A stretch of DNA of 64,000 bases from Hemileia vastatrix (Eukaryota > Basidiomycota > Pucciniomycetes > Pucciniales > Zaghouaniaceae): assembly GCA_030280995.1 (NCBI GenBank), contig JASXTE010000010.1, positions 27,706,823 to 27,770,822 on the forward strand, given 5' to 3'. A model generated the notes under the pieces. That model ran no database searches, had not been told where the DNA came from, and was given only the letters and a program-made list of their open reading frames with translations. Shown here piece after piece: positions 6,001 through 40,476 of the stretch; the stretch's first letter is position 1; each line of letters opens with the position of its first letter. Both the position numbers and the translations under genes were made by a program.

Positions 6001-6055
6001 GGAGATATCTAATCTTCCTACTCTACTAAAAAAGTATAAAAAGAAAAAATCATAG
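42..6055 (+). pseudogene. A1 gag-pol polyprotein remnant
   Basis: Decayed single-frame gypsy polyprotein. Visible parts in order: Ser/Lys-rich gag start (the family ATG is GTG here at 42), coiled-coil gag (987-1592), capsid-like region (about 1600-2150), a zinc knuckle near 2229-2272 of the CX2CX7HXC type that has lost its last Cys (now Phe), protease with DSGAGG (about 2555), reverse transcriptase with YIDD (about 3630), RNase H (about 4050-4450), integrase (HHCC, SDRDPKF, HHPQTDGLAER) and a chromodomain-like C terminus (about 5900-6055). In-frame stops at 393, 885, 984, 1590, 5293 and 5473; frameshifts near 3770, 5115 and 5955. Comparison with A2 shows each stop is a single-base change in an otherwise matching frame. 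Confidence 0.92.
181..693 (+). pseudogene. Overlapping +1-frame coiled-coil ORF in A1 gag (one stop)
   Basis: A second reading frame (+1 relative to gag) encodes a small protein starting at ATG 181, with a basic LPKGFRIKQMPLSQQ stretch, a heptad-like segment rich in Leu and Glu (about residues 35-75), then a K-W-K-W-D segment and a Pro-rich tail. One TAA at 439-441 interrupts it where A2 has CAA. The same protein is open in A2 (14479-15018), B1 (43387-43899) and B2 (57972-58505). See the finding on overprinting. Confidence 0.6.
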
Positions 6056-6075
6056 CATTTTATTATTGTTTTTTT

Positions 6076-6087
6076 AGAGTGAGGGAG
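6076..6087 (+). other. Polypurine tract of A1
   Basis: AGAGTGAGGGAG lies directly before the TGTCAGCC start of the 3' LTR. The same purine block precedes the 3' LTRs of A2, B1 and B2, as expected for the plus-strand primer of LTR retrotransposons. Confidence 0.85.
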
Positions 6088-6602
6088 TGTCAGCCAGGCT
6101 ACTAGACTTACCCAGTAAAATAATTTATTATCTTACTGAGGTGAAGCCACGCCTTTTAAATCCTTATTAACAATTGATTATTTATTAACTACTTATGTGT
6201 TACTTACAAAAAACTAGCTAAGTACACTAAGTAATGTAGATAATTAATAAAAATAAGTACTTGTCCCATATATATTTTTACTCCCAAACACCGTGCTCAA
6301 TAATACAGATGAGATGGGAATAAAATTAGTATTAAAAAATATAAAATTATCAAAAGAAAAATACTTTTCAAATTCCTTTATTTAGATTTTATTGATTCAA
6401 TATTTCAAATCAAATGTTCTTGCACTAAAATGTGACAGACCAAAGGGTTCAGAGTTTTATTTCAAATAAAATAAATACATTTATTAACACACTATTTAGT
6501 CTTACTCTTATTATTTCACATACTCTCTTTATTTAAGTTTTTTCCTCTCACACTCTTGTATCAGGTGGTGTTAATTACGTGTTTTATTTCTCACATTTTG
6601 CC

Positions 6603-6610
6603 TATAAAAG
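6603..6610 (+). promoter_or_regulatory. TATA box of the A1 LTR
   Basis: TATAAAAG inside the LTR, followed by GGCCC. Equivalent boxes are visible in the other LTR families here, so this is the probable core promoter of the element. Confidence 0.55.
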
Positions 6611-6886
6611 GCCCTTCCTTTTTGTACTTTTTGATTCATTCCTTATTTACTTTACAAATTTTTATAACACATTAGTTAAACAAATTTATTACTATTATTT
6701 ATAACCATTAGTATTTACATCACCGTAATTCTAAGAGATATAAATTATAATAATATTAAAATTTACCTCTTATTAATTTGAGTAAAACAATCAAGTAGAT
6801 TAAGAAATACGTACCTTGCCTTTGAGAGTCCATTAAAACTCTTAGAAACCTCACAGAACCTTCGAATAAATCTTCTAGACAAAAAG

Positions 6887-8138
6887 TGTCGGTCAGTTGT
6901 CTAGAAGAGAGGAAGAAAAATGGGAAGAAGTAGAAGAGGAGATGGAGGAAAGGATTATGGATAATAAAAGAAATAAAAATTATAAAAATTATTTAATTTA
7001 TTGAGGAAAATCAACGACGTCTTTCTTGGGAGGTGACAAAAGTAAGGTTCTTATTAAATAATAATATTATTCTAATGTAAGGGCTATGCGCGGCAGACAC
7101 TGTGATTACTATCAGACTTAAAGCAACATTTAAATTGTTATATAGAATTTTAATTAGAATTTTATTACTAATAAAAAGAATATAAACGTAATGTAAAAGT
7201 ATATTTAATTTGTTGAGTGTATAGTAAGTGATGAGGCTACAGGGGATTATCCAAGGCCCTTTTATAGGCAATGGGTCCTCTGAAGCACCACTATATTTGT
7301 AAATACAAGAATTATAATAGGATGAAACAAGAATATAAAAGAATAAGTGAAACATAACAATGTAGAGAAAAATATGAAACAAATAATTAAAAACCCCAAT
7401 TAAGAATCAAATTTTCCCACAATTAATTCCCAAATCAGTAAGTAAAAATAGTGAATAACTAAACAACCATGTGATCTAAGAACTATGGGAAAAACAAATC
7501 AAAACAAGTATTACAATACGTTTTCAGCATTTCTAAGTGAAACAAATAACATGTTTTGACGCAACAAGGTATGCAATCAATTTAATTCAGCGTAAATTTA
7601 TATTATTTAATTGTTTTCACTTATGTAATTAAATAATAGTATAACTGAAACAATCAATTAATTTAATTTGAGAAATTATAACACTATTTTAAAAAATAAG
7701 TGCTATAATTTATTAAATTTTCTTCCTGACACAATTAAGGGTCAAGAGAAGCGCCATTAATTATTGATTAATACTATATGAAGGATGTTATTTAATATAT
7801 AAATGTAAATAATTAATTTAATTATATTATAAGTCAATTTTACACTTATAATTATAATATATGTTCTTAATTAATTAAATATAAATTTATAATTATTAAA
7901 TACATAAAAATGCGCCGTTATTTGTAGAATATAAAATATATTATGTTTAATTTAAATGTATAAAAATTTATATAAACAATAAAATTAATATAACACTTAT
8001 ATGTAATAAGATACTTATATAATTTTATTATGCAATAAAATATTAATTTATATACATTAAATACAATTCTTACGCCCTCTCTCAGGTCCTATAAGTTAAC
8101 ATATCATTTACTGGACTCCTGGAATAGCCTGGCTGACA
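6887..8138 (-). mobile_element. Solo LTR of family B, minus orientation
   Basis: Begins TGTCGGTCAG at 6887 and ends GCCTGGCTGACA at 8138 (1252 bp), which is the reverse complement of a B-type LTR (compare 51327-52451). It is flanked on both sides by AAAAG (6882-6886 and 8139-8143), a 5-bp target-site duplication, and lies inside the A1 3' LTR. No internal region is present, so it is a recombination-derived solo LTR. Its reversed TATA region is at about 7258-7268. Confidence 0.92.
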
Positions 8139-8154
8139 AAAAGACCCCTTGACA

Positions 8155-8410
8155 CAAATACACAACACAATCTTATTATATATAATATAGTTATATGGTT
8201 ACAATCATTAGCCTTTTAAATATAATTTTTATTCTATTTTTCTGTCAATTTTAAGCGCCATTTATATTTATGTTAGTGAGATTATTTGATATGCAGGCTA
8301 CTAATATTTGAGTTGATATAATATTTTACTTTAAATTAGATTGGTGAGCAACTAATATTCATACTGGACCATAAATACTTCTAGACAACAATTTTTCTGA
8401 GAACTTATTA
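8155..8410. other. AT-rich spacer, nothing recognised
   Basis: Sequence between the A1 LTR end and the readable Tc1/mariner transposase. It should contain the left inverted repeat of that transposon, but only a weak match (TACTGGACC at about 8362) to the right end is visible. No gene is seen. Confidence 0.5.
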
Positions 8411-24000: not shown

Positions 24001-25088
24001 TATGGTAAGGTAAACTCTTACAGTCGCCTTGCTGTAAGCAGAATCCGGAGGAGATATGTGGATTTAGCTGAAAACCCCGTCCTTCCAATAAAAATAACAA
24101 AATGGGAATTCTAAATCACTAAGCTAACCAGTCTACTTGGATCTGATTAATAAAAATAATGAAACTCTAAAATATTTAACGCTTATTGAGATTTAAAGAA
24201 AGTGGCTGTTGAGAAAGAAATACTGAATACAACAATTAAGGTGTACCAGTGAAAGATCTGTAAAGATTGACTTTTATGTTTTTATAATAATTTGAATTTT
24301 TATGAGACAGCAATAATCAAGTCCCAGTGATGAAGACCTTTCTAAAGATACCCTGTATGAAGTGTGATTTTAAATTGTGTAGTAGTATTTCTAAAATGTT
24401 ATATATAAAATATAAAGTTATAAGGGTATTACAAATTTATTTAATTTGTTGAGTAATAAAAAATGAGACCGTGGTGGTTAATGATTAAGCTGTATGATGT
24501 GTCCCCCCTCTCAATTTCGAGTTTGAGAAGCGCTTAAGTATTCCTAGTCACGTGCCTAAGTTTTCCCCTCCAGAGCTCTTCCAGAGTCAATCCGGAGCCG
24601 GAACGGAGTCCGTCCGGACTTCCGGACTCAATTAGAACCTTAAAACTATAATAAAAAAATCTAGAAAAATTACACATAATAGAGCTACTTCCCCTTTACA
24701 TACCAAACTAATTTTCGTAGTCTGCGCAGCTCTAATTACCCCGTGAAAATTCATCAAAGTTAAGTAATTTTTGAAAACGTAAATATTTCTATAAAACTTT
24801 AAAATTCATTTAAAAATATAAGAAAAATAGTAAAAATTCTGGGAAAATTTCCCAAGGTTCTTGAGTGACTTGACTTGATACTTATAAATTTTTCAGACCA
24901 TAAAAATAAGTTTTCTCCGTAAACTAAATTGTATTTGTGTAGGCATTCGCTCGTGACCGATTTCTTCATATTTTAAACTCCAATAAATTAAATAAAACCC
25001 TTTTATAAAAAATAATAACGCCAATCTCGCACGCCGTAATAACTCCATTTACATATTTAGGTGCCGTACTAAACTTTAGGCTACCACA
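24001..25088 (-). repeat. D 3' LTR
   Basis: About 1088 bp, nearly identical to 33567-34665; a short insertion in the latter (an extra GGAGTCCGTAT-type repeat near 34170) accounts for the length difference. The purine tract TTGGAGGGAGGA is immediately upstream on the minus strand (25089-25100). Confidence 0.93.
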
Positions 25089-27915
25089 TCCTCCCTCCAA
25101 TTGAGAATGTCCCCATTCTTAAAACTTTGCATAAGTGGTTGAGCAATTCCAAAAGAATTATCTTTTCTAATAAAATAATTTGATAAATTTGTTTTAGCTG
25201 GTCTTCTTTTAAATCTTTATAATAAAAATGTTCTTTCTTCTTCTCTGGCTTGATATAACATAAAATAATATAAATCTTGTGATGATTCCACTACGAGAGC
25301 AAGGTTTGAATCCCTTCAGACTCCCATTAACCAGTCTTCTTTCTTGTCACAGCATTGAGAGAGTGGATCTTCCTATGAGCCGAATACTCCTGATTCCAAC
25401 CTCATAGGGCCCCCCACTGAGCCGAATTCTATGATTCCATTCTTGCCATAAGGTTCTCCAAGCTTCACACCAAAAAAAAAATGGCCTAACTATGAGGCAC
25501 TAAAAAAAATCATTCCCTAAAATCCAACTACCATCCTAACTTCTGATTCCTTCATCACAATTTGAAAACTTTGCTATACAGCAAACCCATAAAATACTTT
25601 TGCCAGGCTTCCAATAATAATATTAACTTTAGACCATGTTAAAGCGCCACAAATTTCACCTAATTAAACATTATGCTTTCCATAGCATCATTACCACCTA
25701 AAATTTTAACCTCCTAAAGCTTATCAGCACCCAATTCCAGAAATAATTGAATAACCAGTTTTGAGTCATAGTGGACAGTGATAAATTAAAAGATTGAATT
25801 GAGTTATCCAAACAAGATTGACATTCCAGTTTAAAGTCTTGGTGGACCAAAAATATAATCGATTGCCAGTTTATGGTCTTGGTGGACCAAAGATCGTTTA
25901 GGTGCATAAATAACTTGATATATTCCTAAGTAAGGCCTAGGCTTGACCAAAGATTGAATAAATTTGATAATCCAGTTTAATGTCATAGTGGACCAAACAT
26001 TTGATCGACAAGTAATCCAGTATAAGGCCATAGTGGACCAATGAATGTTGAATTATCCTGCAGATATTAATTTTCCAGTTTAAAGTCATAGTGGACTAGA
26101 CAATGAATGAACTACCAGTTTAAAGTCATGGTGGACCAAACATTTAATCGATAAGAAATCCAGTTTAAGTCATGGTGGACCCAACACTTGATAATAGTCC
26201 AGTTTAAGGTCTTGGTGGACCTAAAAAATCCAATAAAAAAAAAAATTTAACGATAGTCTTGAAAATTAGCCAGTTTAAAGTCTTGGAGGACTAACAGCTC
26301 CAAAATTTGTATAAAACCTTAAGGAAAGTCTTGAACAGTAGCCAGTTTAAAGTCTTGGAGGACTAACAGCTCCAAAATTTGTATAAAAAAATCTTAAAGA
26401 ACGTCTTGAACAGTAGCCAGTTTAAAGTCTTGGAGGACTAACAAATCCAAAATACGTATAAAAAAACTTAAAGAACGTCTTGAAGAGTAGCCAGTTTAAA
26501 GTCATGGAGGACTAAACAGATGTCTTGAAGTAAAATCCCATAGGTATTGAGTTCCCCTATACCCTGTTTCCAGTCTAAACTATATGAATAAACTAAAAAG
26601 AATGATGACTGAAAAATAAAACTAGGAAATATAATAATAATTTTGATTTAATTATTTTTTTTTTTTTTATTTTATTTTTATTTTTATTTTTATTTTATTT
26701 TTATTTTTTTATTTTTTTTATTTTATTTTTATTTTTTTTAAATTTAAATTTGTTTTTTTTTATTTTTATTTTATTTTATTTTATTTTTTTATTTTATTTT
26801 ATTTTATTTTATTTTTATTTTTATTTTTATTTATTTTTATTTTTATTTTTATTTTTATTATTATTTTATTTTATTTTATTTTATTTTTTTTTTTAAAAAA
26901 TAAAAGATTTTAGAAAAGATAGTTTAGAAATAAAATTTAAAATTTAATTTTTAAAGAAAGATAAATGAATGTGAAAAGAAGTAATAAAAAAGAATTATCA
27001 AAATTAAAATTTTAAAAGATGCCCCCCGGCCATTTGATGAGCCGTACCCTCGACATCATACCCACATCCAAGTGCAACTTGATGTGGTTACACAATTTTG
27101 AGAAATTGAAAAGAAAAGAAAATAAATGAAAGTTTTTAGAAGATAATTTTTATAATGATGATCACTGGGTGGGCTCCCTCCAATTTATAAAAATGATTAG
27201 AGACCACCAGTGAGCATCACCTTTACATTAATTCATAATATATATTAAAGAAAAGAAATCACAATCTAACATAAAAAATCAAAAACAAAATAAAAAAATC
27301 TTGAATCCGGCGTTGAGAGCGGTGTCTCTTGATTCGTTCCAGTTTATAGTCTTAGTGGACTTCCTATAATTAAAAGACAAAGCCAGGATTCAACTAGAAA
27401 CAGGGAAAATTTTGGAAACGAACATTATGGGGTAATTGTGTATAGAGCAGCCAGCCCATCAATTACCCCCACACTTGCCAATATTAAATTAAGAAGGTTC
27501 CCCTGTGAACACTTCTTCCAATAAATTTTAAAAAATTTTCCAACACTATCTTCAACCATATTTTAAGAATTTTTAATTTTGAAAATTTTCAATGAAGGTT
27601 TTCTTGCATTTCGTTATGTTTCATCACAGTTTTGTCGCCCATATGCAGTGTAATGATAGTAAAGTATTTTTTGATAAAAATAAGAAGATAGTTTATACTC
27701 GTTGCGGAGGAATCCATAAAATTTCGTAGATATCATAGTTTATCCTCATTGTGGAGGTCGTCATAAAATATTGTCGATATCATAGTTTATCCTTATTGCG
27801 GAGGAATCCATAAAATTTAATAAATGTCATTAAAATTGTAGTTTATCCTCATTTTGGAGTTATCCATATAATTTCATAAATTTCATAAAAATTGTAGTTT
27901 ATCCTCATTTCGGAG
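25089..27915 (-). other. D 3' untranslated region with repeated hairpin motif
   Basis: Non-coding stretch between the integrase stop and the 3' LTR. It holds 13 copies of a hairpin-plus-tail motif at 25755-26513 (starts 25755, 25826, 25866, 25972, 26017, 26075, 26115, 26160, 26199, 26270, 26342, 26417, 26491), one at 27339 and five at 27689-27916. From 26270 they sit in tandem units of about 70-75 bp. Each reads CCAGTTTA followed by a short stem-loop on the plus strand. It also has a pure T/A tract (26649-26897) and an inverted repeat GATCACTGG/CCAGTGAGC near 27162-27216. Confidence 0.85.
26649..26897. repeat. TTTTA-type low-complexity tract
   Basis: About 250 bp made almost only of TTTTA and TTTTTA units, inside the 3' untranslated region of element D. 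Confidence 0.95.
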
Positions 27916-30900
27916 TTAGACTTCGGCACTCCTGGTGCCTCTAGGATAGAACCGTTTCACTTGATCGGCTGCTACCCTCTTCTTTAATACTACTCCATCC
28001 AACTCTTCTAGCACATATGAACCGCCGGAAACTTGCTCCTTGATTTTATACGGTCCATTCCACCTATCTGCAAACATCTTTCCCCACTGGCTTTCCAAAC
28101 TCCTATTATACACCAAGACCATATCTCCTGGGTTCAAAGGTTTCCTTAATCGATGTGCCAACCGCTCATCCCAATATCTAACTGATTGATTTCGGATCTT
28201 CATCATCCGCGAATATGCCTTTTCTAAATATTCTTCTTTCTTTTCTAGCTGCATCATTCTTGCACACAACAATTCTTCAGTAGTTTTGACCGTGTCCCAG
28301 TCAACTCCAAGATATGATTCAGCTTCTAAATCAACTGGTAAAACTGCTTTCTGTCCAAAAACAAGTTCATAAGGTGAAAATCCGGTCGTCCTTTTGGCAG
28401 TGATTCAATCAGCAAATAAAACTAAAGGTAAATAGTGCCTCCACTTTTTGGCACTTGTCCCACACATTTTAACTAAAGCATCCTTAATAACTTGATGCCC
28501 TCTTTCAACCATGCCTTCAGCTTCAGGATAATATGGGGTTGCTACCCTAACCTTTGATCCAACTTTCAATACGGCCTCTTTAAACTCTGTCCCAAATTCA
28601 GGACCTCCATCTACCGTTACCAACTTCATCACCCCATACCTATATACCCAATTATTCAAAAAAAATTCTGCCACATTTTTGGCAGTTAAATTAATAAGAG
28701 GCGCTGCCTCTACCCAACCAGATAAATCATCTCTGGCCACAATTAAATATTTATACCGTCCCTCTTTTATATGAACGGCATCTAAACTAACTCTTCCAAA
28801 GAGCGTATATTCACCGGTCGCGCGTCCAGGTTCTTTTGGCCTTAAATAACTTTGTCTTTGACATTCTTCGCATGACTGAACCCACTGTTTAACAGCCATC
28901 TTCATGCCAGGCCACCAAAATCGATCAGAAATTCTTCTAAATGTTTCTCCAACGCCTCTATGCCCGAGATCTTCATGCAGTGATTTCAAAACTAATTCTT
29001 GCCCCTTCTGTTGAGTTATAACTACTTGAGGATTTGGATATCTCCTCCTCATTAAACATCGACCAGATAGGTAAAACGTAGATGACTTCCTCTTGATAGC
29101 CACCCATTCATCGTCTTCACACTCTTCTGGCCTCTCTAAAGTCAACAAATATTTGACTAACAAAAAATAAAAACCAGTCTGACCCCAGACTTCATCTTGA
29201 AAATCGATTAATATAACATCAATAGGGACTTCTCTATCACCAATATCACCTGCACATGAATGAGCCAATAATCGTTGACCCCTAAACAAATCTTTAATCG
29301 AGCTATGTTGACGTTTTTCTTCTGAACCTTTGGATCCTTCGTAAACCGTATTCGAAAATACCTCTTTCTCTTTATCCATCTTTTTATTTAAATTCTCTAA
29401 TTCTCCAACATATACACCATTCCTTAATTTACTACTATCCCACACTACCAATCCATTTTCCTCTACATACACTACATCTTCTTCTACCTCCTCTCTGCCG
29501 AATTTATCTACACCTTTTCCAACACCTTTATTAACATAAAAACTATTTTCTAGTTTATCCTCTTGGTGGAGGTCATCATCTCCATAATCTAAACACAATA
29601 GTCCTGCCAGTTTAACCTCATGGGGGAGGTATGGAAAGTCTTCAGCTCCTTTAGTGCTGGCTTTGATAATAGGTATATCTTCATCAAACTCTTCTGAGTC
29701 TGAATCTTCTTCAGTGGGTGGTCTCCTTGATAAACCATCTGGCATAGTAAAAGTTTTGCCAGGCTTATGAACTAAATCAAACAAAAAATGTTGAATAAAA
29801 GCTACCCATCTCGTCATGGGTGCATTCGGTAAACTTGGGGAATTAATCATCTGGATTAACGATTTCGCATCCACTTGCAACTCAAAATGTTCAAAATATG
29901 CTGAAGTTTCTTCAGTATTTTCGCCACACCACATAATTCCAATTTTGGTTGAGAATATCTTGATTCGACCTCAGTAAATACTACAGATTCATACCTAACT
30001 GGCCTGATGTAACCAGCTTTATCCATCTGAGACAAAACCGCCCCAGCTGCAACCTGACTTGAATCAACTGCTAAATAAATTCTGTCAGAATCTTTTCCAT
30101 AATCCAACTTGTGCAGGACTAAATCCTTCCCCACAACCTCCTTCAACTTCACAAACGCCTTCTCACACTCTTCATCCTTTCTCGTTAACAGTCTCAATGG
30201 AGCTGCCAATGAAGAAAAGTCCTTGATAAACATTCTAACATATACGCAAACGCCTAAAAACCCTCTGACTTCGGTCGTATTCTTGGGTCTTGGCCAGGAC
30301 TGAATTTTGTTAACTTTCTTCTTGGACATAATCCTACCCTCTCTACATACCACATGGCCTAATATTTCTAAGGCTGGCACACAACATGAAAATTTTGAAC
30401 CTGAAATAGTTAAACCAGCCTCTTCAATTCGAAACAAGATTCTTTCTAATGTAATTGCAAACTCCCAAATGAATTTGCGTATCCCGGGATTCTCTTCCAA
30501 CACCTGGTTATCATAGTCGGTTTTTGGTCCCTTAATTCCTCCATCATCTATAAAGATTCCAGCATATTGTGGAATTTCATATTGAAGGATCCAAGCCATC
30601 TGAGCTTGATAAACTGCAACCGAATTTGTTGCTCCTTGAGGTAATCTTGTTAACTGTAAACGTCCAAGTGGCGTATCGAATGTAGTGAGTGGCCTTGAGT
30701 CCGGATGTAACTCTCTCTCATCATATCCACCCATAATATCTCCCAAACCATAACACACTCTCCCTGCAAACGCTTCAACAAACTCCTCAGCACTAGGTGG
30801 TATCCCAGCATCCTTTATTGTAACCCTATTTAATTCCCTAAGATCATGAACAACTCTAAGCTTGCCATTCGGTTTCTTGATACAAAATACCGGACTAGAA

Positions 30901-32129
30901 TAACTTGACGTTGATTGCTCATACAGTCCAGTGCGTATCCGTTCTCTGACAACTTCGATATAAGCTTCTTTCAATGCAGCCGGAATAGGAATCGGTTTCT
31001 GCTGCCATGGTTCATGACATACCACAGGAATCTTGTAAGGCTCCCCATAGGAATGCTTCAACACACCCCTCTCCTCTTCTACAAAAGCAATGGCCTTCTC
31101 TCGCTTGACCATCACATCCAACAACAACTTCTTCTCTTCTCCAGACAACCAACCATCAGGTCCAAAATTAACAACACCCAGTCTCTCAAAAGTGATTCTT
31201 GACGTCTCAGAAAATTCAGGCGGATTCTTTACCAAGGGACTTTCATAAGGATCTCTTGATAACCTTGGTCTTCTCAAAGGTGGATTTAATTCAGCAGGTA
31301 GCGGTTCATTAATAGGTCGAACTTTATTTGCTACTTTCTTATATTTGGCTGCGTCCACATCTAAATTAACCTGAGGTAAAACATTTTCTTTTGTATCGCC
31401 ATTAAAACTTTCATCAAATGAATCTTCTTCATCGCCAGAATCAGAATAAGAAAAATTAGAAAAATATTTTATTTCATTTTTAAATTTTACCCTTTTCTCC
31501 TTTCCCTCGTCTAATTTATAAACAGATTTTCCAACACCTTTTCTTCCCTTATCCAACAGTAAATCACCCGTAAAGAAAGTCGGCAGTTTAACCTCTTGCT
31601 GGAGGACCGGAATTGAATTTTCACAAAAATTATTATTTTGAGTTTTAATTATACTGAGATTTTTTATTGGATTTTGATAAGATTTTCGCAGCTTACCCTC
31701 TTGCTGGAGAACCGGAATAACATTTTCACATAAATTATTTTTTTGTGTTTTACTTATACTGAGATTTTTAATCGAGTTTTGATGAGATTTTCGCAGTTTA
31801 CCCTCTTGCTGGAGGTCCAAAAACATACCCTTCCAATTTTTATCCAACCTAATTTGGCCCATTTTGCCTTTTTCACCGTTTTTAAATTTAATAGAAAAAC
31901 CGGGTAAATCCAATAAAGATATGGAAAAGTCCAAAACGTATTTGCACTCCAAATTAATATTAACAGAAAATAATTGAGAATCCACTTGAAGTATCTCCAA
32001 GTGAGCTGACCTATTGCAATCCGGGATCTCATCCTGAGGAGAGATTACAACATTAGAGTGATCAGCCCCTGCTACCCCAAAAAATGAGGGCATCCATAAT
32101 AATTTGAATCCTGAATAAATTGAAGACAT
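27916..32129 (-). pseudogene. D pol: reverse transcriptase, RNase H, integrase (two breaks)
   Basis: Read from 32129. The N-terminal part (about residues 90-200) contains 35-residue tandem repeats, each starting LQQEGKLRKS; no protease motif was recognised. Reverse transcriptase has RLPQGATNS and FIDDGG (a variant of YxDD). A frameshift near 29900 inside RNase H shifts to the frame 29934-28405, which carries the integrase HHCC finger (HRGVGETF...CEEC), the Asp motifs VTVDGGPEFG and the Glu motif EAEGMVERG. A TGA at 28405-28407 interrupts before the C-terminal part, which continues to 27916 with a GPYKI-type motif. All catalytic residues seem present, so the element died recently or the frameshift is programmed; I favour mutation. 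Confidence 0.9.
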
Positions 32130-32185
32130 AACAATAATAAAAAATTTCAGCCGAGTTTAGGTAGTTTATCCTCATTTCGGAGGAA

Positions 32186-33391
32186 TTAAATTCTTGATAT
32201 CCCCTGGAGATAATCCAAAATTTTGCCCCAAGGGCTTATCCACCAATTCCATAAAACCCAAAAATAAACCCCCATAATTTGTCCTACCATTGGACATAAA
32301 AAATAAACAACCCTTTTCCAAAATATGAGTGCATCCAATTTATGCACTCTATTACCAAATGCCACTACACTCTTTATTAGTGCAGGGAAAACCATATCCT
32401 CCTTAAAAATCTCTTCCTGAGATTGAAGCAAATCCACCATACATATACCAGATTCATAAACCATATCCACATCTGAATTGCAGACAGTCTCCGCTTTTGA
32501 AGACAAAACCTGAGGTAAATATTCCTCTAAATCAAATTCCAAATTATCCAAAACAAAATTATCCCCAACATCCAAATTTTCTTCATCAGTGACAATAATA
32601 TCTTCATCTTCAGAAACCTCTTCTTTCCTAACAGAAGATTCAACAAAAATAATATCTTCAGGCTGGACAAAATCTTCAGGAATGGCTGAATCTGAAATTT
32701 CATCAGTAACTAGTTCTTTTACACCATCCTCTTCTATCTCTTGAGCGACCTCAGTGTCTTCTCCAGAGTCCAAATCAACAGAGTTATGAGTATCCAGATG
32801 TTCCAAAATAACCTTCTTTAGCACCTCCATACCAGGAATCCTAGTTTCTCCATCTGGAAGATCCTTCATTAAATTTGCTTTAATAAGCACCATCAAAACA
32901 TCTTTCTTAACCTTTTCCCCCATAGCATCCCAAAAAACATACTTTGATGCATTATCATGAAATAAAATTTCATACTCCAACAAATAATCCAGAACCACCT
33001 GAAATTCAACCATAAACTGATGATACTGATGCAGAGATGTTACACCACCTTTTGATTCCCATTTCCTAGCTATATCCTTTAGATCCTCCAATGAATAAAC
33101 TTTTGGCCACCTTTTTTCCATTTCCATCTTGAGCTTTCTCCAATCTTGATCTTTATAACCATCCATAGAAATAACCCCCTTTTCCACCTCTCTGTCCAAA
33201 ATAAAGAACCTAATCTGCTTCACCATATCCAAAGGTAAAGCACCATCAATAGCAGCTGCAGTTTCATACCTATAAAAAAATCCTTCTAAATCATCTCCAG
33301 AAAACTTGGGCCCAACCCAAGATACAATCCTTACTGATGCCCTAACAGGTACACCAGCAGCCAACACAGCAGTTCCACTAGTAGAAGACAT
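32186..33391 (-). CDS. D gag
   Basis: Open frame of about 400 codons, from MSSTSG at 33391 (an upstream ATG at 33418 is also in frame) to a stop at 32186. The first 200 residues have the pattern of a gypsy capsid domain (WVGPKFSGDDLEGFFYRYE ... hydrophobic helices); the middle is very acidic (Glu/Asp-rich, about residues 210-300). No zinc knuckle is visible. It lies 180 bp inside the 5' LTR, and pol starts about 57 nt after its stop; a hairpin motif copy lies in this gap (32161-32183). Confidence 0.85.
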   Translation of the reverse strand: MSSTSGTAVLAAGVPVRASVRIVSWVGPKFSGDDLEGFFYRYETAAAIDGALPLDMVKQIRFFILDREVEKGVISMDGYKDQDWRKLKMEMEKRWPKVYSLEDLKDIARKWESKGGVTSLHQYHQFMVEFQVVLDYLLEYEILFHDNASKYVFWDAMGEKVKKDVLMVLIKANLMKDLPDGETRIPGMEVLKKVILEHLDTHNSVDLDSGEDTEVAQEIEEDGVKELVTDEISDSAIPEDFVQPEDIIFVESSVRKEEVSEDEDIIVTDEENLDVGDNFVLDNLEFDLEEYLPQVLSSKAETVCNSDVDMVYESGICMVDLLQSQEEIFKEDMVFPALIKSVVAFGNRVHKLDALIFWKRVVYFLCPMVGQIMGVYFWVLWNWWISPWGKILDYLQGISRI

Positions 33392-33547
33392 CCCAAAACA
33401 TAAGAAAAGCGTTAACAACCGTTAAAATAAAAAGCCTCTTGCAGGCCAATAACAAAATCCAATTAGAGTTCCAGAGAATAAGCCTCTTGCAGGCTAAGAA
33501 CGTTCTTGATCCAAGTAAGTCTTTTAAAGAAAGCTAGAGAATTCGAA

Positions 33548-33564
33548 CCCCACGTTGGGCGCCA
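33548..33564 (-). other. Primer-binding site of D
   Basis: On the minus strand TGGCGCCCAACGTGGGG starts two bases inside the 5' LTR. It begins with TGG (complement of CCA) and continues as GTTCGAA, so it is complementary to the 3' end and T-arm of a tRNA. This is the clearest tRNA primer site in the window. Confidence 0.9.
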
Positions 33565-33566
33565 AC

Positions 33567-34665
33567 TATGGTAAGGTAAACTCTTACAGTCGCCTTGCTG
33601 TAAGCAGAATCCGGAGGAGATATGTGGATTTAGCTGAAAACCCCGTCCTTCCAATAAAAATAACAAAATGGGAATTCTAAATCACTAAGCTAACCAGTCT
33701 ACTTGGATCTGATTAATAAAAATAATGAAACTCTAAAATATTTAACGCTTATTGAGATTTAAAGAAAGTGGCTGTTGAGAAAGAAATACTGAATACAACA
33801 ATTAAGGTGTACCAGTGAAAGATCTGTAAAGATTGACTTTTATGTTTTTATAATAATTTGAATTTTTATGAGACAGCAATAATCAAGTCCCAGTGATGAA
33901 GACCTTTCTAAAGATACCCTGTATGAAGTGTGATTTTAAATTGTGTAGTAGTATTTCTAAAATGTTATATATAAAATATAAAGTTATAAGGGTATTACAA
34001 ATTTATTTAATTTGTTGAGTAATAAAAAATGAGACCGTGGTGGTTAATGATTAAGCTGTATGATGTGTCCCCCCTCTCAATTTCGAGTTTGAGAAGCGCT
34101 TAAGTATTCCTAGTCACGTGCCTAAGTTTTCCCCTCCAGAGCTCTTCCAGAGTCAATCCAGAGCGCGTACGGAGTCCGTATGGAGTCCGTCCGGACTTCC
34201 GGACTCAATTAGAACCTTAAAACTATAATAAAAAAATCTAGAAAAATTACACATAATAGAGCTACTTCCCCTTTACATACCAAACTAATTTTCGTAGTCT
34301 GCGCAGCTCTAATTACCCCGTGAAAATTCATCAATGTTAAGTAATTTTTGAAAACGTAAATATTTCTATAAAACTTTAAAATTCATTTAAAAATATAAGA
34401 AAAATAGTAAAAATTCTGGGAAAATTTCCCAAGGTTCTTGAGTGACTTGACTTGATACTTATAAATTTTTCAGACCATAAAAATAAGTTTTCTCCGTAAA
34501 ATAAATTGTATTTGTGTAGGCATTCGCTCGTGACCGATTTCTTCATATTTTAAACTCCAATAAATTAAATAAAACCCTTTTATAAAAAATAATAACGCCA
34601 ATCTCGCACGCCGTAATAACTCCATTTACATATTTAGGTGCCGTACTAAACTTTAGGCTACCACA
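33567..34665 (-). repeat. D 5' LTR
   Basis: About 1099 bp, starts TGTGGTAGCC on the minus strand and ends CTTACCATA. It is almost identical to the 3' LTR, indicating a fairly recent insertion relative to the A and B elements. Confidence 0.93.
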
Positions 34666-34669
34666 ACGT

Positions 34670-37137
34670 ACAGCTTTTTCCTGAGAGATAAGAGTTTCCT
34701 CATCCTTGAAATCACCTAGCTTCATATTATTGAGGATATGACCTAGAGAGCCCTTAGATGGTGGTGGTTGACAAGCAGCTTTGTGAGCCGGAAGTTGGTC
34801 ACCAGGGAAAACAGCCATAGCAGATTCAAAGAAGGAGTTTGACTCTGGGTGCCAAAAAATCCAACCTGCATTATTCAGAGAATAGCCTATACACTTACAA
34901 ATCAAAGCTCGTTGGTCCAGTTTACGTCTAGTTTCTTTGTGGATATGGACAAAAGCTGTTTCACCAAATATTCTGAGGTTTGAGTAAGTTGGGTCACAAT
35001 TGTACATGAGCTTCAGAGGAGTTTTGTCACCAGTCTTGACATTTGGGAGCCGGTTGTGAACATGAGCTGCCCATTTGTAAGCAAGGCCCCAGAAACATTC
35101 AGGTAGTTCACTTGCTAGTAAGATTGTCCTGGCAATGTTGTCACAGGAAGACCTACGCACAAGGTCGAGGATGTTCCTGAAAGTGAGATGAGGGGTTTAG
35201 AAACTTCTTCGAAGCACAGAGGAATGATTCGAGGAAATGATTCGAAGGTCACTCGAAGTAATAGCTACAGGTTTGAGGTTCGTTCGAGAAGAATTATAGA
35301 CTAGTTTCAGAGGTAATAGTAATTCTTAAAATCTCACAAAGGGTTGGAAACTCAATAATCAAAGATTTAGGATTTAGAAATGAATATTGAGAAAATAAGA
35401 GAAAGATACAATAATAATGATTTTAACTTTAAGGATTTACCACTATTTATGTAAATACGATTTTATAATTTAATTCTAAGGAATATCGAACCAAATACCC
35501 AACCCCTTTTATATCCTTTGTTCCTCCTCGCATTGAACTCCCTTCCATCGCACCATTCCCATTCCATTGACCATTACTAACATACACTTAGACCCTCTTT
35601 GCTAAATATCCGTCCATGCTCAATTTACCCCTTTTTAATTCATTAACAAAACTTTTAATGAAAACTACTACTGTACTATTTTGTTGAACCTAGAGTTGTG
35701 CGTTGCTTATTGAAAAGGACTAATGTACCCTATTGGGAGATTGACTCATTTAGATTTAGAGTTTAGGCTAGCGCAGTTAAATAGTAAGTACACAAAGGAA
35801 AATCGCAGTTGCTATGGAGAATTGCTTTCTGCGCTTCGAGCATAGATTTAGGACTCGATATTATTGATTTAATGAGTTGATTTCGCCTCAAGTGTCACGT
35901 GGCGCATGACAAATGTCCCCGACAGTTCTGTTGAAACGTTCAGCTGATCCATTTTGTTCATGGTGGTGAGGACAGGTGATCTCGTGAGTAGCCCCAATGT
36001 CAGCCAGGATCTGAGCCATCTGTTTACTGTGCATTTCCCCCCATCTGTTCTTAATGCTTGTAATTTCTTACCAGTAACATTTTCTAGCTTTTTATAAAAG
36101 GTAACAAAAGCAGTTGTGGCCTCAGATTTGGAGTTGAGTAAAAATATCTCACCATAGGAAGTTGAACTTTCTCTAAACATTGCTGCCCATCTTGCCCCAT
36201 TAACAGTAGGATCCATAGGACCAACCAGGTCTCCAACAATGAGGCTCATCATTGATTCTGGTCTTGATTCCCGTGTTGCTGATGGTTTTCTTTTACTTTT
36301 GGCTATTTAGCAATCTTCACAGTCAATCTTACCTGGTGGCATAGAAAGGGGCAAGCCAGCACCAATTCCAGTTCTGATTATATTGCCAATTGAGTTTTCA
36401 CTGGTGTGACCAAGTCTTCTATGCCAGTCCATGAGGGAACCTTTTTCAGCAGGTGGTCAATTAATGGTCTCATTCTTTTTTACAGTACGCAGGAGAGAAG
36501 GATGCAACGGTAAATGATAAGAGGAAACATTTTGATTGCAGTCACTAGACCTAATTACATCTAAAATCCATCTTCTCCTAGTACTTTCCAACCGCCCTGT
36601 CATAATCAGTTCATCTTTAAAATAAATCCCTAAATTTTTTTCTTCAGAACATAAATCAAAACAAAAACCATTGTCCACTAAATCAAAGAGAGAAATAAGA
36701 GTGGTTCTAACTTCTGGACAATAAAAAACATTGGTAATAGTAACAACTTTCCTATCTCCTTTTATTTTTAGGTCCCCTATGCCAGTGATAAATGATGAAG
36801 GACAATTAGTTGCTACTTTGATAGGGATTTGATTTTTAAGAGATCTGAAATTGCTGAGAAGGCTCACATTGCCAGTGACATGATGGGTAGCACCAGAATC
36901 CAATACTGCCACATTCCTGGGGAGCGCTTCAAGTGACCATCCTGCACTGTTCAGATCAATTTGTTCCAACTGTTCATACAAAGCCTCCACATTTTCTTCA
37001 AAGATAGTGACTTCATCTGCATCAATTTGTACATCCTGTGCCCTAATTTGCCTGTGTTGTGGTCTTCTGTAAGGGATGTATATTGGTTTGCTTTTTGCCT
37101 TTGGGTCAGAAGCAAGGGTTGTAGCACGCTCTCTCAT
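34670..37137 (-). pseudogene. Copia protease and integrase region, interrupted
   Basis: Read from 37137. Protease has LDSGATHHVTGN (about 36890). Next the GAG-pre-integrase finger (WHRRLGHT ... CEDC, about 36310-36440) followed by an in-frame stop, then the integrase core (DLVGPMD, LRTDGG at about 36050, ERFNRT at about 35930) with a frameshift in its middle. A 773-bp solo LTR (35139-35911) splits the frame in the codons after ERFNRTVGD; removing it and one AATGT restores ARTILLASELPE. The downstream region continues to QEKAVR at 34670, where element D begins. Confidence 0.88.
35139..35911. mobile_element. Solo LTR of family F in copia integrase
   Basis: 773 bp from TGTCACAGG to GCGCATGACA, flanked by AATGT on both sides (35134-35138 and 35912-35916). 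It is the same family as the 773-bp LTR of element F at 59338-60110. Confidence 0.95.
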
Positions 37138-38961: not shown

Positions 38962-39165
38962 ATGTGTTTTTGTGGCGTTCTTTTCACGTGCTATTCATTC
39001 ATACCTGCCTGTATTGAGCAAACTACTAATATATATACTGGACTCCCTTTATTATTTTTGTCTGTTTTTTTCTGTTCACTCAATATTATTATTTATTTTT
39101 ATAGGTCAGAGATACTCTTCTATTACCATTTACTTTTTCTCATTTTTATGACTATTGTATGTAGT
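38962..39165. other. Ancestral intergenic DNA right of copia
   Basis: Continuation of the sequence interrupted at 22105. No gene recognised. Confidence 0.5.
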
Positions 39166-39456
39166 TAACAGCGGCACAAGATAACTCTTGAGGGCAGATC
39201 GTTCTATTGACTCTCTGCTTATTTATTTATAAAAGGTTAGAATTGTGTATTTAGCTGTTACTTTGTATTGTCAGTAATTTTCTGTTCACTCAATAGTATT
39301 ATTTATTTTTATAGGTAACAGCAGCACAAGACCACTCTTGAGGACAGATCGTTTTATTGACTCTCTGCTTATTTATTTATAAAAGGTAACAGCGGCACAA
39401 GACCACTCTTGAGGGAAGATCGTTTTATTGACTCTCTGCTTATTTATTTATAAAAG
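39166..39456. repeat. Three copies of a 71-74-bp repeat
   Basis: Units at about 39166-39236, 39314-39384 and 39385-39456, each running from TAACAGCGGCACAAG to TTATTTATAAAAGG. A second short repeat (TTTTCTGTTCACTCAATA) precedes units 1 and 2, so the block arose by stepwise duplication. Confidence 0.85.
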
Positions 39457-40476
39457 GGGTTTAATTGCTTTAAGCTTTCAAGTGTGTGTGTGGGCTGGCA
39501 GGTTCCACCGGACTAACAACAGACAGTTGCTAGTAGATATAATCATTGTAGCTTATAATAAATTAAAAATAATATAAAAACATTAATATATTGTTAAAAA
39601 GATCATAAAAAGGCATATATAACTATAAAAAATGAAATAAATAAATAATTATTTTTACTTCAATCCATGAAGATACCAATGGATATATTCTGTTCATAAG
39701 TTGTTATGTAGAAAAAGGATAACCACATAAATTATATTTAAAGTAAAAATTGAGAGCTGATAAAGCACTTAATGATAAGGTCTTACAAATGGGACTCAAC
39801 TTGATCAACAAATTCCTCTTGGATGCGCAAGGAACAATGAAGAGTCACTATTCTCACTTGGGTGGAAAACCTCACTGGACAACTTAATCTCTTCCTTTCA
39901 GTATTGAATCTTCTGTATTCATTCTTGGATCGCTTTAACACCTAATAGGACACTTCAAATGGATACCAATAGACTTCATTTACTTTATTGATATTGTTTT
40001 TCTATTATTATTTCTGTTATCTTTTTCCTTTCAAACTGTATCTTAAAAAAGGCTGTGTTTTTCTTATCTAGTTGTCATATATATAGTTATAGAAATTATC
40101 TATCCATCACCTGATAAGAGATGTGTTTGTTATGGCGCCTAAAAATCTATTTATTTGTTGTCTAGCTATCAATTAAATATATGTATGATTTCCCACATTT
40201 ATCTACCTTTTACTCTATAAAAGTTTTATTAAAACCTTATTATTCCTTCCTTTAAGTTCTTTCCTTCATTTGCATTACTTTTCTGTAGGTTACTTTAGTT
40301 TTTTTTCTACTCTATTTACTTATATTTTCTTCTAATTCGAACTTTCTTCACCTTAACTCATCTCAGATATTATTTTCTCACCCTTATTAGATAGATTGTG
40401 TGTCTCTCATGAGAACTTTGTATGCACATGGTGTGGGAGGTTAATAGAGATTTAGACTTGACTCATCCTGAGTAGG
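39457..40476. other. AT-rich intergenic sequence
   Basis: No coding sequence or clear element recognised. A TATAAAAG-type sequence is at about 40217, which could belong to an old LTR, but no LTR borders were found. Confidence 0.45.

What the first reader, a model, noticed from the sequence alone, without database searches (positions are those of the whole stretch)
25755..32183. About 25 copies of a covarying hairpin-plus-tail motif throughout gypsy element D
In the sense of the element the motif is a short stem, a six-base loop (C-N-N-C/A-A-A/U), the closing stem and a near-invariant TAAACTGG tail. Non-coding copies mostly have GTC...GAC stems (for example GGTCCACCAAGACC); copies in pol (29551, 29606, 31582, 31688, 31793), between gag and pol (32161) and after the integrase stop (27689-27916) mostly have CCTC...GAGG. 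Two adjacent base pairs change together (G-C to C-G, G-U to C-G), and one copy (26017) has GGTC...GGCC. The coding copies always use the same frame (LxxExKL). Compensatory change in coding and non-coding DNA suggests an RNA structure or protein-binding element used many times per genome: packaging, RNA stability and copy-number control are options. I know no described element like it.
Basis: partly seen in the sequence, partly recalled or inferred. Interest (0 to 1): 0.87.

Follow-up and report, generated by a model that had tools for sequence, protein, structure and literature searches.

The report
Coremin-like RNA knots in a retrotransposon
A jumping element in a fungal genome carries about 25 copies of a tiny knotted RNA motif that closely resembles one which RNA viruses of plants and fungi use to stop the cell's RNA-destroying enzyme Xrn1, so it may shield its own RNA in the same way.

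Summary
Gypsy element D (about 24001-34665, minus strand) carries 25 copies of a 23-nt unit, all sense-strand; no other site in the 64 kb scores as high. Each is a 4-bp stem, a six-base loop and a nine-base spacer. Twenty more loci from the same genome plus the window gave 386 hits (379 sense) in 78 site clusters, and conservation stops at the unit's edges. The stem covaries. It survives a test on a tree built from flanking DNA. The motif is not unknown: stem, hexaloop and spacer match the published 'coremin' Xrn1-resistant RNA of RNA viruses (hexaloop YGNNAD, spacer UUAAACUAC). Six window copies are of that form, the first of them at stop codons; nineteen are a compensated variant. At least 68,033 exact copies occur in the 748-Mb genome. 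The second hairpin that coremin needs was not found above chance, and Xrn1 stalling is untested. Best reading: a battery of coremin-like Xrn1 roadblocks in a retrotransposon RNA. My searches found no report of such elements outside RNA viruses.

The parts
24001..25088 (-). 3' LTR of element D (BLAST boundaries; no motif inside)
   Evidence: self-BLAST 98.6% identity to the other LTR; no motif hit of 12.5 or more inside
33567..34665 (-). 5' LTR of element D (BLAST boundaries; no motif inside)
   Evidence: a PBS-like TGGCGCCC follows it in the sense direction (PBS reading recalled, not tested)
32186..33421 (-). gag-type ORF, 411 aa; this copy shows no CCHC zinc knuckle
   Evidence: no Pfam hit; called gag by its place before pol, relatives found
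29856..32156 (-). pol ORF, N-terminal part (RT, RNase H)
28405..29970 (-). pol ORF, middle part (integrase zinc and core domains), other frame
27916..28404 (-). pol ORF, C-terminal part after an in-frame TGA (28405-28407)
32161..32183 (-). motif, canonical-like: CCTC[CGAAAT]GAGG ATAAACTAC; starts 2 nt after the gag stop codon
31793..31815 (-). motif, variant, in pol: loop CAGCAA, tail TGC
31688..31710 (-). motif, variant, in pol: loop CAGCAA, tail TGC
31583..31605 (-). motif, variant, in pol: loop CAGCAA, tail TGC
29607..29629 (-). motif, variant, RNase H-integrase linker: loop CCCCAT, tail TGG
29550..29572 (-). motif, variant, linker: loop CACCAA, tail TAG here (TGG is the majority of its 12-copy site cluster)
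27894..27916 (-). motif, canonical-like: loop CGAAAT; overlaps the last base of the pol stop codon
27838..27860 (-). motif, canonical-like: loop CAAAAT
27782..27804 (-). motif, canonical-like: loop CGCAAT
27735..27757 (-). motif, canonical-like: loop CACAAT
27688..27710 (-). motif, canonical-like: loop CGCAAC
27339..27361 (-). motif, variant: loop CACTAA, tail TGG
26491..26513 (-). motif, variant: loop CTCCAT, tail TGG
26417..26439 (-). motif, variant: loop CTCCAA, tail TGG
26342..26364 (-). motif, variant: loop CTCCAA, tail TGG
26270..26292 (-). motif, variant: loop CTCCAA, tail TGG
26199..26221 (-). motif, variant: GGTC/GACC stem, loop CACCAA, tail TGG
26160..26181 (-). motif, variant with a spacer one base short
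26115..26137 (-). motif, variant: loop CACCAT, tail TGG
26075..26097 (-). motif, variant: loop CACTAT, tail TGG
26017..26039 (-). motif, variant: GGTC/GGCC stem, loop CACTAT, spacer TTATACTGG
25972..25994 (-). motif, variant: loop CACTAT, tail TGG
25866..25888 (-). motif, variant: loop CACCAA, tail TGG
25826..25848 (-). motif, variant: loop CACCAA, tail TGG
25755..25777 (-). motif, variant: loop CACTAT, spacer CAAAACTGG

Best explanation
Element D's RNA carries a battery of coremin-like exonuclease-stalling RNAs. Each is a 4-bp hairpin with a six-base loop, followed by the spacer WUAAACU-NN. In the variant copies the loop pairs back onto the end of the spacer and forms a small H-type pseudoknot (supported by covariation). 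I infer that when the element's RNA is decapped, the host 5'-to-3' exonuclease Xrn1 runs into the first intact copy and stops just upstream of its stem, as it does on viral coremin RNAs. This would protect the RNA downstream and leave nested 3'-coterminal fragments. Many copies in series would give back-up when one is unfolded by a ribosome or lost by mutation. Shown here: the motif, its copy number, orientation, pseudoknot covariation and sequence match to coremin. Inferred: the stalling and its benefit to the element.
For: Published coremin is GUCCGAAGACGUUAAACUAC; hexaloop versions need YGNNAD, and natural loops CGCAAU and CGAAAU resist Xrn1 and occur in several viruses, among them chrysovirus CcCV1 (PMC10520033, parts 1-5 of 6 read). 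Window copies 32161 and 27894 have loop CGAAAU and spacer AUAAACUAC, 8 of 9 spacer letters as in coremin; 27782 has CGCAAU. The loop-strict pattern TCYGNNADGASNWTAAACTAY occurs 14,135 times in this genome and its reversed control 0 times. Information content is confined to the hairpin and spacer, positions -2 to +19, the parts of coremin conserved in sequence. The loop-closing C-G (37 of 38) and the U-A below it (36 of 38, 2 U-G) hardly vary. Pseudoknot: 94.4% of 266 cells paired against 79.7% in shuffles, covariation score 0.410 against 0.151, 0 of 500 shuffles as high. On a tree of flanks only, loop3/spacer9 has 7 double Watson-Crick changes (null mean 0.35, largest 4 in 400 simulations). 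All 17 full-length window variant copies with G at spacer 8 have all three S2 pairs, G-U allowed; of all 312 sense units with that G, 256 do (185 by Watson-Crick pairs alone). Genome-wide: loop GCA with tail TGC 18,693, with TGR 756; loop TCA with TGA 10,293, with TGC 141; other combinations were not counted. Places (after stops, between ORFs, 3' UTR, coding) are of the kinds reported for viral coremins. The genome encodes XRN_N proteins. A gag-only relative in which no pol match was found keeps 18 motif hits (L033), and its junction is matched at 40 of 40 scored places (1,033 candidates).
Against: No excess of a second hairpin (hp2) right after the spacer: 22% of 78 clusters have one with negative energy at offsets 0-2 against 29% in shuffles, and no excess at offsets 0-1, 0-5 or 0-8. 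The paper calls hp2 absolutely required, although 2 bp can suffice. Nineteen of 25 window copies are the variant, which lacks the G at loop position 2. In the BNYVV context loops without that G (CAGAAA, CAAGAA, CAAAGA, CCGAAA) failed; the spacer there ended UAC, not UGN. Of the six canonical-like window copies only three meet YGNNAD, and of all 66 sense units with A at spacer 8 only 37. The CCCCAA loops with tail TGAGG break the third S2 pair. In my first R-scape-like run the S2 pair had E = 1.9. Rfam shows no matching family. No RNA or nuclease data exist here.
Confidence: 0.6

Rival explanations
1. Repeated binding site for Gag or another element protein that marks the genomic RNA for packaging or dimerisation.
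For: Many sense-strand copies per RNA. A gag-only relative without a detected pol keeps the motif, as a cis-acting mobilisation signal would. Ty1 Gag binds a pseudoknot at the 5' end of Ty1 RNA (passages of PMC4974528).
Against: The canonical-like copies match a coremin xrRNA nearly letter by letter, which packaging does not predict. No motif was found in the window's LTRs. Copies of the same family do encode a CCHC knuckle (L046, L050), so Gag has an ordinary RNA-binding domain. In Ty1 a packaging role of the pseudoknot could not be shown.
Confidence: 0.15
2. Ribosome control: copies at the gag and pol stop codons and in inter-domain linkers slow or block ribosomes, to tune Gag:Pol output or co-translational folding.
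For: Coremin stalls scanning ribosomes, and the CGAAAU hexaloop does so more than wild type. Copies sit 2 nt after the gag stop, on the pol stop, before RT and between RNase H and integrase.
Against: Fourteen of the window's 25 copies lie 0.5 to 2.2 kb beyond the pol stop, where no ribosome is expected. Of the six loci with a gag match (window, L031, L032, L033, L035, L037) three show a copy at the gag stop (window, L031, L033).
Confidence: 0.12
3. No function: a short unit that spread by tandem duplication and template switching and is conserved only because copies are young.
For: Several copies lie in tandem units of 45-105 nt, and the window element's LTRs are young (98.6% identical). Between D and D2, at five shared sites, unit columns are only moderately more alike (0.83-1.00) than flanks (0.77-0.81).
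Against: Across different sites the flanks carry 0.0-0.5 bit while the conserved unit positions reach 1.5-2.0 bits. Subfamilies whose gags are 43-46% identical over the aligned parts keep it. Covariation exceeds tree-based nulls.
Confidence: 0.07
4. DNA-level protein-binding site with interleaved inverted repeats.
For: The stem is an inverted repeat in DNA too (seen directly in the sequence).
Against: 379 of 386 hits have one orientation relative to the transcript and the other seven are poor matches. Two interleaved complementary helices plus an A-rich spacer fit an RNA pseudoknot and a published RNA motif.
Confidence: 0.03

Closest known systems
Coremin xrRNA (xrRNA_C) of beny-, cucumo- and other RNA viruses, hexaloop form (Dilweg, Peer and Olsthoorn 2023, PMC10520033; Flobinus et al. 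2018, PMC5869530)
   Same: Four-bp hairpin with loop-closing C-G, hexaloop YGNNAD in much of the canonical-like class, spacer (U/A)UAAACUA(C/U), and places after stop codons, between ORFs, in the 3' UTR and in coding sequence.
   Different: Host is an LTR retrotransposon in a cellular genome, not an RNA virus. About 25 copies per element instead of one or a few. Most copies are a variant with loop YNN(C/U)AW and tail UGN joined by up to three base pairs. No enriched second hairpin. Xrn1 stalling untested.
Flavivirus xrRNAs (recalled, and as described in PMC10520033)
   Same: Proposed role: tandem Xrn1 roadblocks in a 3' UTR.
   Different: Those are large multi-helix ring folds; this unit is 23 nt.
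Polerovirus frameshift pseudoknots such as BWYV (recalled, from no call)
   Same: Small H-type geometry: short first loop starting with C, 3-bp second stem, one junction base, A-rich third loop of about 6 nt.
   Different: Different function; most copies here lie outside coding sequence.
Ty1 5' RNA pseudoknot (passages of PMC4974528)
   Same: Pseudoknot in an LTR retrotransposon RNA.
   Different: Long-range and at the 5' end of the RNA.

Membership tests
coremin xrRNA (xrRNA_C) | 4-bp hairpin hp1 with conserved loop-closing pairs | tested here: met
   96.1% of stem cells paired in 38 variant-class cores; closing C-G in 37 of 38, next U-A or U-G in 38 of 38. In the window 18 of the 24 full-length copies have 4 of 4 pairs and 6 have 3 of 4, G-U allowed
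coremin xrRNA (xrRNA_C) | Loop YGAD or, for hexaloops, YGNNAD (canonical-like class here) | tested here: inconclusive
   Met by 3 of 6 canonical-like window copies, by 37 of 66 sense units with A at spacer 8 and by 14,135 exact genome sites, reversed control 0. The tetraloop form occurs 0 times
coremin xrRNA (xrRNA_C) | Loop YGNNAD (variant class here) | tested here: not met
   None of the 18 full-length variant copies of the window (17 with G at spacer 8, plus 29550) has G at loop 2; the spacer changes with the loop
coremin xrRNA (xrRNA_C) | Spacer UUAAACUAC with essential C and U | tested here: met
   Canonical-like: AUAAACUAC or AUAAACUAU, so 7-8 of 9 letters; variant: mostly WUAAACUGN. C and U nearly invariant
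coremin xrRNA (xrRNA_C) | Second hairpin hp2 directly after the spacer | tested here: not met
   No excess over dinucleotide shuffles at offsets 0-2, 0-1, 0-5 or 0-8 in 78 clusters. A 2-bp hp2 can suffice, so absence is not proven
coremin xrRNA (xrRNA_C) | Stalls Xrn1 one nucleotide upstream of hp1 | not testable with these tools
   Needs a nuclease assay or 5'-end sequencing
H-type RNA pseudoknot | Two crossing helices supported by compensatory change | tested here: met
   S1 and S2 on 38 of 52 distinct cores (the 14 with A at spacer 8 left out): covariation 0.410 against 0.151; flank-tree test. Not true of the canonical-like class, whose loops do not form the same S2
retroelement packaging signal | Needed for selective encapsidation by Gag | not testable with these tools
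   No binding or transposition data

The most novel reading that the evidence does not exclude
Working exoribonuclease-resistant RNAs are not confined to RNA viruses. A fungal Ty3/gypsy family has turned a coremin-type xrRNA into arrays (8-27 hits per fetched locus) and spread at least 68,000 units through one cellular genome. It uses host Xrn1 as an RNA-processing enzyme: decay of the full transcript would stop at the copy 2 nt after the gag stop and leave a shorter RNA whose first ORF is pol, and would stop again in the 3' UTR to make stable non-coding RNAs. The variant class is a second, self-compensated form of the motif in which a 3-bp loop-spacer helix replaces both the G of YGNNAD and the second hairpin.
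Probability: 0.3. Interest if true: 0.95.

Novelty: new variant of a known kind. Interest (0 to 1): 0.86.

Why it matters
If it works like coremin, this is an Xrn1-resistant RNA in a retrotransposon; my paper searches found no report of one outside RNA viruses (the broader one search was uninformative). The 2023 paper states that no coremin structure had been solved; hundreds of natural copies here give covariation evidence that loop and spacer pair, which makes the fold directly testable. LTR retrotransposons such as Ty1 and Ty3 depend on P-body proteins (passages of PMC4974528), and an element carrying its own decay blocks would give that link a concrete RNA handle. It also raises the question whether such motifs move between RNA viruses and cellular genomes.

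Tried and rejected
Zinc-knuckle loss: the window's gag shows no CCHC knuckle, which suggested that the motif replaces it. Rejected as a family trait: L046, L050 (D), L049 (D2) and L035, L037 (E) carry one.

Coding motif in relatives: of 76 public pol relatives (Puccinia striiformis, Austropuccinia psidii and others) only two match L[PQH][QHPE]E.KL (P0049, P0058: LPEE.KL), in a context that looks like the ...GEEKKLLL... stretch before RT and not like the motif. The coding copies therefore look lineage-specific; most of these hits cover about 64% of the query or less and may lack the linkers.

Virus contigs: the variant pattern hit 48 IMG/VR stretches, one match each. The canonical pattern hit 112, of which 80 rows were listed, one match each; one contig appears twice. 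No array was seen. No shuffle control was run there and I read this as chance.

Rfam: two matches, both under their gathering scores and unrelated.

First R-scape-like run (60 simulations): only the stem pair -1/+10 had E below 0.05 (0.017). Loop3/spacer9 had E = 1.9 by the pooled null, although it was the top pair outside the stem columns and above its own null maximum (247 against 183). Signal rose when the class with spacer G8 was analysed on a flank-only tree, a choice made after seeing the first result. In one search one control pair (loop2/tail4) also showed 3 double changes (null largest 2), although its Watson-Crick count equalled the null; the loop4/tail2 pair showed none, since its tail side is fixed by the selection of rows. 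Shuffles stratified by stem class give weaker p values, 0.0084 and 0.0034.

First count of structure pairs had S2 one column out of register; repeated correctly.

Idea dropped: that the canonical-like class pairs loop 2 with spacer 9. The examples I looked at are mixed; not claimed. No target-site duplication was found.

Full report
WHAT IS THERE. Element D is a Ty3/gypsy-type LTR retrotransposon on the minus strand: LTRs at about 24001-25088 and 33567-34665, 98.6% identical; a gag-type ORF; pol with RT, RNase H and integrase domains. This copy is broken in pol, by an in-frame TGA at 28405-28407 and a frame change around 29856-29970. Between pol and the 3' LTR lies a 2.8-kb stretch without a long ORF. 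The motif occurs 25 times, always on the sense strand: once 2 nt after the gag stop, three times before RT, twice between RNase H and integrase, five times in a row of which the first overlaps the pol stop codon, and 14 times further into the 3' UTR. No other site in the 64 kb scores as high, and the window's two LTRs hold none.

BREADTH. The pattern TCCNCNAWGACTTTAAACTGG occurs 24,912 times in the 748-Mb genome. The hexaloop coremin pattern occurs 14,135 times, loop TCA with tail TGA 10,293 times and loop GCA with tail TGC 18,693 times. The four patterns exclude each other by their tails, so at least 68,033 exact units exist; all four reversed controls are 0. I fetched 20 ten-kb loci, all from the first 3 Mb of one contig and chosen because they hold hits, so not a random sample. 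With the window they give 386 hits, 379 of them sense, 8 to 27 sense hits per locus. They fall into at least three subfamilies, which I sorted by eye from motif flanks and BLAST: D, D2 and E. Against the window's D, E-type gags are 43-46% identical over 156-257 aa, and E pol pieces 35-83%; yet units sit in the corresponding places. A gag-only relative, L033, shows no pol match at 1e-10 yet keeps 18 hits; its 301-bp junction is matched over its full length at 94-100% identity at 40 of 40 scored places (1,033 candidates).

THE UNIT. I clustered the 386 hits by their flanks into 78 sites. Over the 56 sites with two or more members, information content is 0.0-0.5 bit outside the unit and 1.5-2.0 bits at its conserved positions, and the change falls at the hairpin start and the spacer end. 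Between D and D2, at five shared sites, unit columns are 0.83-1.00 identical and flanks 0.77-0.81, a modest difference. Coding copies use rare leucine codons as the RNA motif demands: CTC makes up 10 of 121 Leu codons in the two pol frames, and 5 of those 10 are in the five coding copies.

A SECOND HELIX. Mutual information over 230 distinct sequences put loop base 3 and the last spacer base above every pair that is not within the stem. Among site-cluster sequences, a scan of positions -2 to +7 against +8 to +25 for excess complementarity again put this pair directly after the two stem pairs (z = 6.7; other loop-with-spacer or downstream pairs at most 2.4, loop 6 with the outer stem base 3.3). 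Spacer position 9 carries only 0.2 bit itself, as expected for a base that is free except for pairing. Types are C-G, G-C and U-A; the neighbouring pair is C-G or U-G; the third is A-U in all 38 cores. On those 38 variant-class cores (of 52 distinct cores; the 14 with A at spacer 8 left out, weak hits included) S1 plus S2 pair in 94.4% of 266 cells against 79.7% in shuffles; sliding drops this to 15-40%. With a tree from flanks only (196 distinct sequences), loop3/spacer9 is Watson-Crick in 160 of 196 (null mean 71, largest 136 in 400 simulations) with 7 double changes (null largest 4); stem pairs show 3 and 4. Of 312 sense units with G at spacer 8, 256 have all three S2 pairs with G-U allowed, 185 by Watson-Crick pairs alone. 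Weaker results are told under Tried and rejected. The layout is an H-type pseudoknot: stem 4 bp, first loop 2 nt beginning with C, second stem 3 bp, one junction base, A-rich third loop WUAAAC.

WHAT IT MATCHES. PMC10520033 (parts 1-5 of 6 read) describes coremin: a 4-bp hairpin, loop YGAD or for hexaloops YGNNAD, a spacer ending UUAAACUAC, then a variable second hairpin. It stalls Xrn1 one base upstream of the stem and impedes scanning ribosomes. Natural hexaloops CGCAAU and CGAAAU are resistant and occur in several viruses, including chrysovirus CcCV1; some motifs lie in coding sequence or embed a stop codon. PMC5869530 (passages) shows that yeast Xrn1 makes the protected BNYVV RNA. Canonical-like copies here (loops such as CGAAAT, CGCAAT, CGGAAT; spacer ATAAACTAC/T) match this, and in the window the first of them start 2 nt after the gag stop and on the pol stop. 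The other copies keep stem, first loop C, A5 and UAAACU but change loop 2-4 and spacer 8-9 together. The paper proposes that the loop's flanking bases contact the spacer; the covariation here supports such pairing for the variant class.

WHAT DOES NOT FIT. The second hairpin, essential in the virus, is not enriched. The variant lacks G2, essential with a UAC spacer. Three of the six canonical-like window copies, and 29 of 66 such sense units overall, break YGNNAD. Until Xrn1 is tested I do not file the element as a member of the coremin family; I say it looks and probably works like one.

MECHANISM. Best-supported chain: transcript decapped, Xrn1 enters, stops at an intact unit, downstream RNA persists. 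The genome encodes XRN_N proteins. Redundancy would explain why dozens of units are kept and why decayed ones are tolerated. A gag-stop copy would leave an RNA with pol as first ORF, since the first pol ATG is about 30 nt further; this is speculation, and among the loci here only the window and L031 have a copy between gag and pol. Packaging and ribosome control remain open.

NOVELTY. 'Retrotransposon' with 'Xrn1-resistant' gave 3 papers; the 2 listed are on other subjects by title and abstract. 'Exoribonuclease-resistant' with 'transposable element' gave 0, with 'benyvirus' from 2019 gave 0, 'rust fungi' with 'gypsy' and 'pseudoknot' gave 0. (retrotransposon, hairpin or pseudoknot, packaging terms) listed 2 and 7 papers, none on this motif by title and abstract. 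Of 143 papers holding 'coremin' or 'xrRNA' I saw 30 in the listing. The broad search gave 3,142 papers, of which the 3 listed do not mention xrRNA, so it says nothing. Subscription papers and preprints are not held, so absence from print is not proven.

Noticed in passing
L033 (reverse strand about 4746-8257): A gag-only relative: gag-type ORFs ending ISRI-stop, a canonical-like unit right after it, then the 3' UTR array, with no pol match between. Amplified (40 of 40 scored junction matches at 94-100%); resembles TR-GAG-type non-autonomous elements (name recalled).
   Followed up: partly
window 32186-33421 and L046, L049, L050: Two gag types: the window type shows no CCHC knuckle while other D and D2 copies encode CSYCNRRGHR..-type knuckles.
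   Followed up: partly
window 31583-31815 and C2:865622-866092: The coding units before RT vary in number between copies (2 to 7 seen in lists), spaced 45, 66 or 105 nt, all multiples of three, so the frame is kept.
   Followed up: no
E-family loci such as L035, L038, L042: Units with loop CCCCAA are mostly followed by TGAGG: the third S2 pair is C-A, but loop base 2 can pair with the next G, as if one base were bulged.
   Followed up: partly
window 26600-26960: Very A/T-rich simple-repeat stretch inside the element's 3' UTR, splitting the motif array.
   Followed up: no
window 39139-39458: Three copies of a 99-nt unit containing TAACAGC(A/G)GCACAAGA..ACTCTTGAGG, an inverted-repeat-like core outside element D.
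   Followed up: no
window 34543-35196: A copia-type (SH3_retrovirus) ORF overlaps the outer end of D's 5' LTR by about 120 nt, which may mean that D lies inside a copia element; no target-site duplication was found.
   Followed up: partly
own genome: All 150 scored places (of 33,249 candidates) encode an RT piece 100% identical to D's over 167 aa, so the family was probably active very recently.
   Followed up: no
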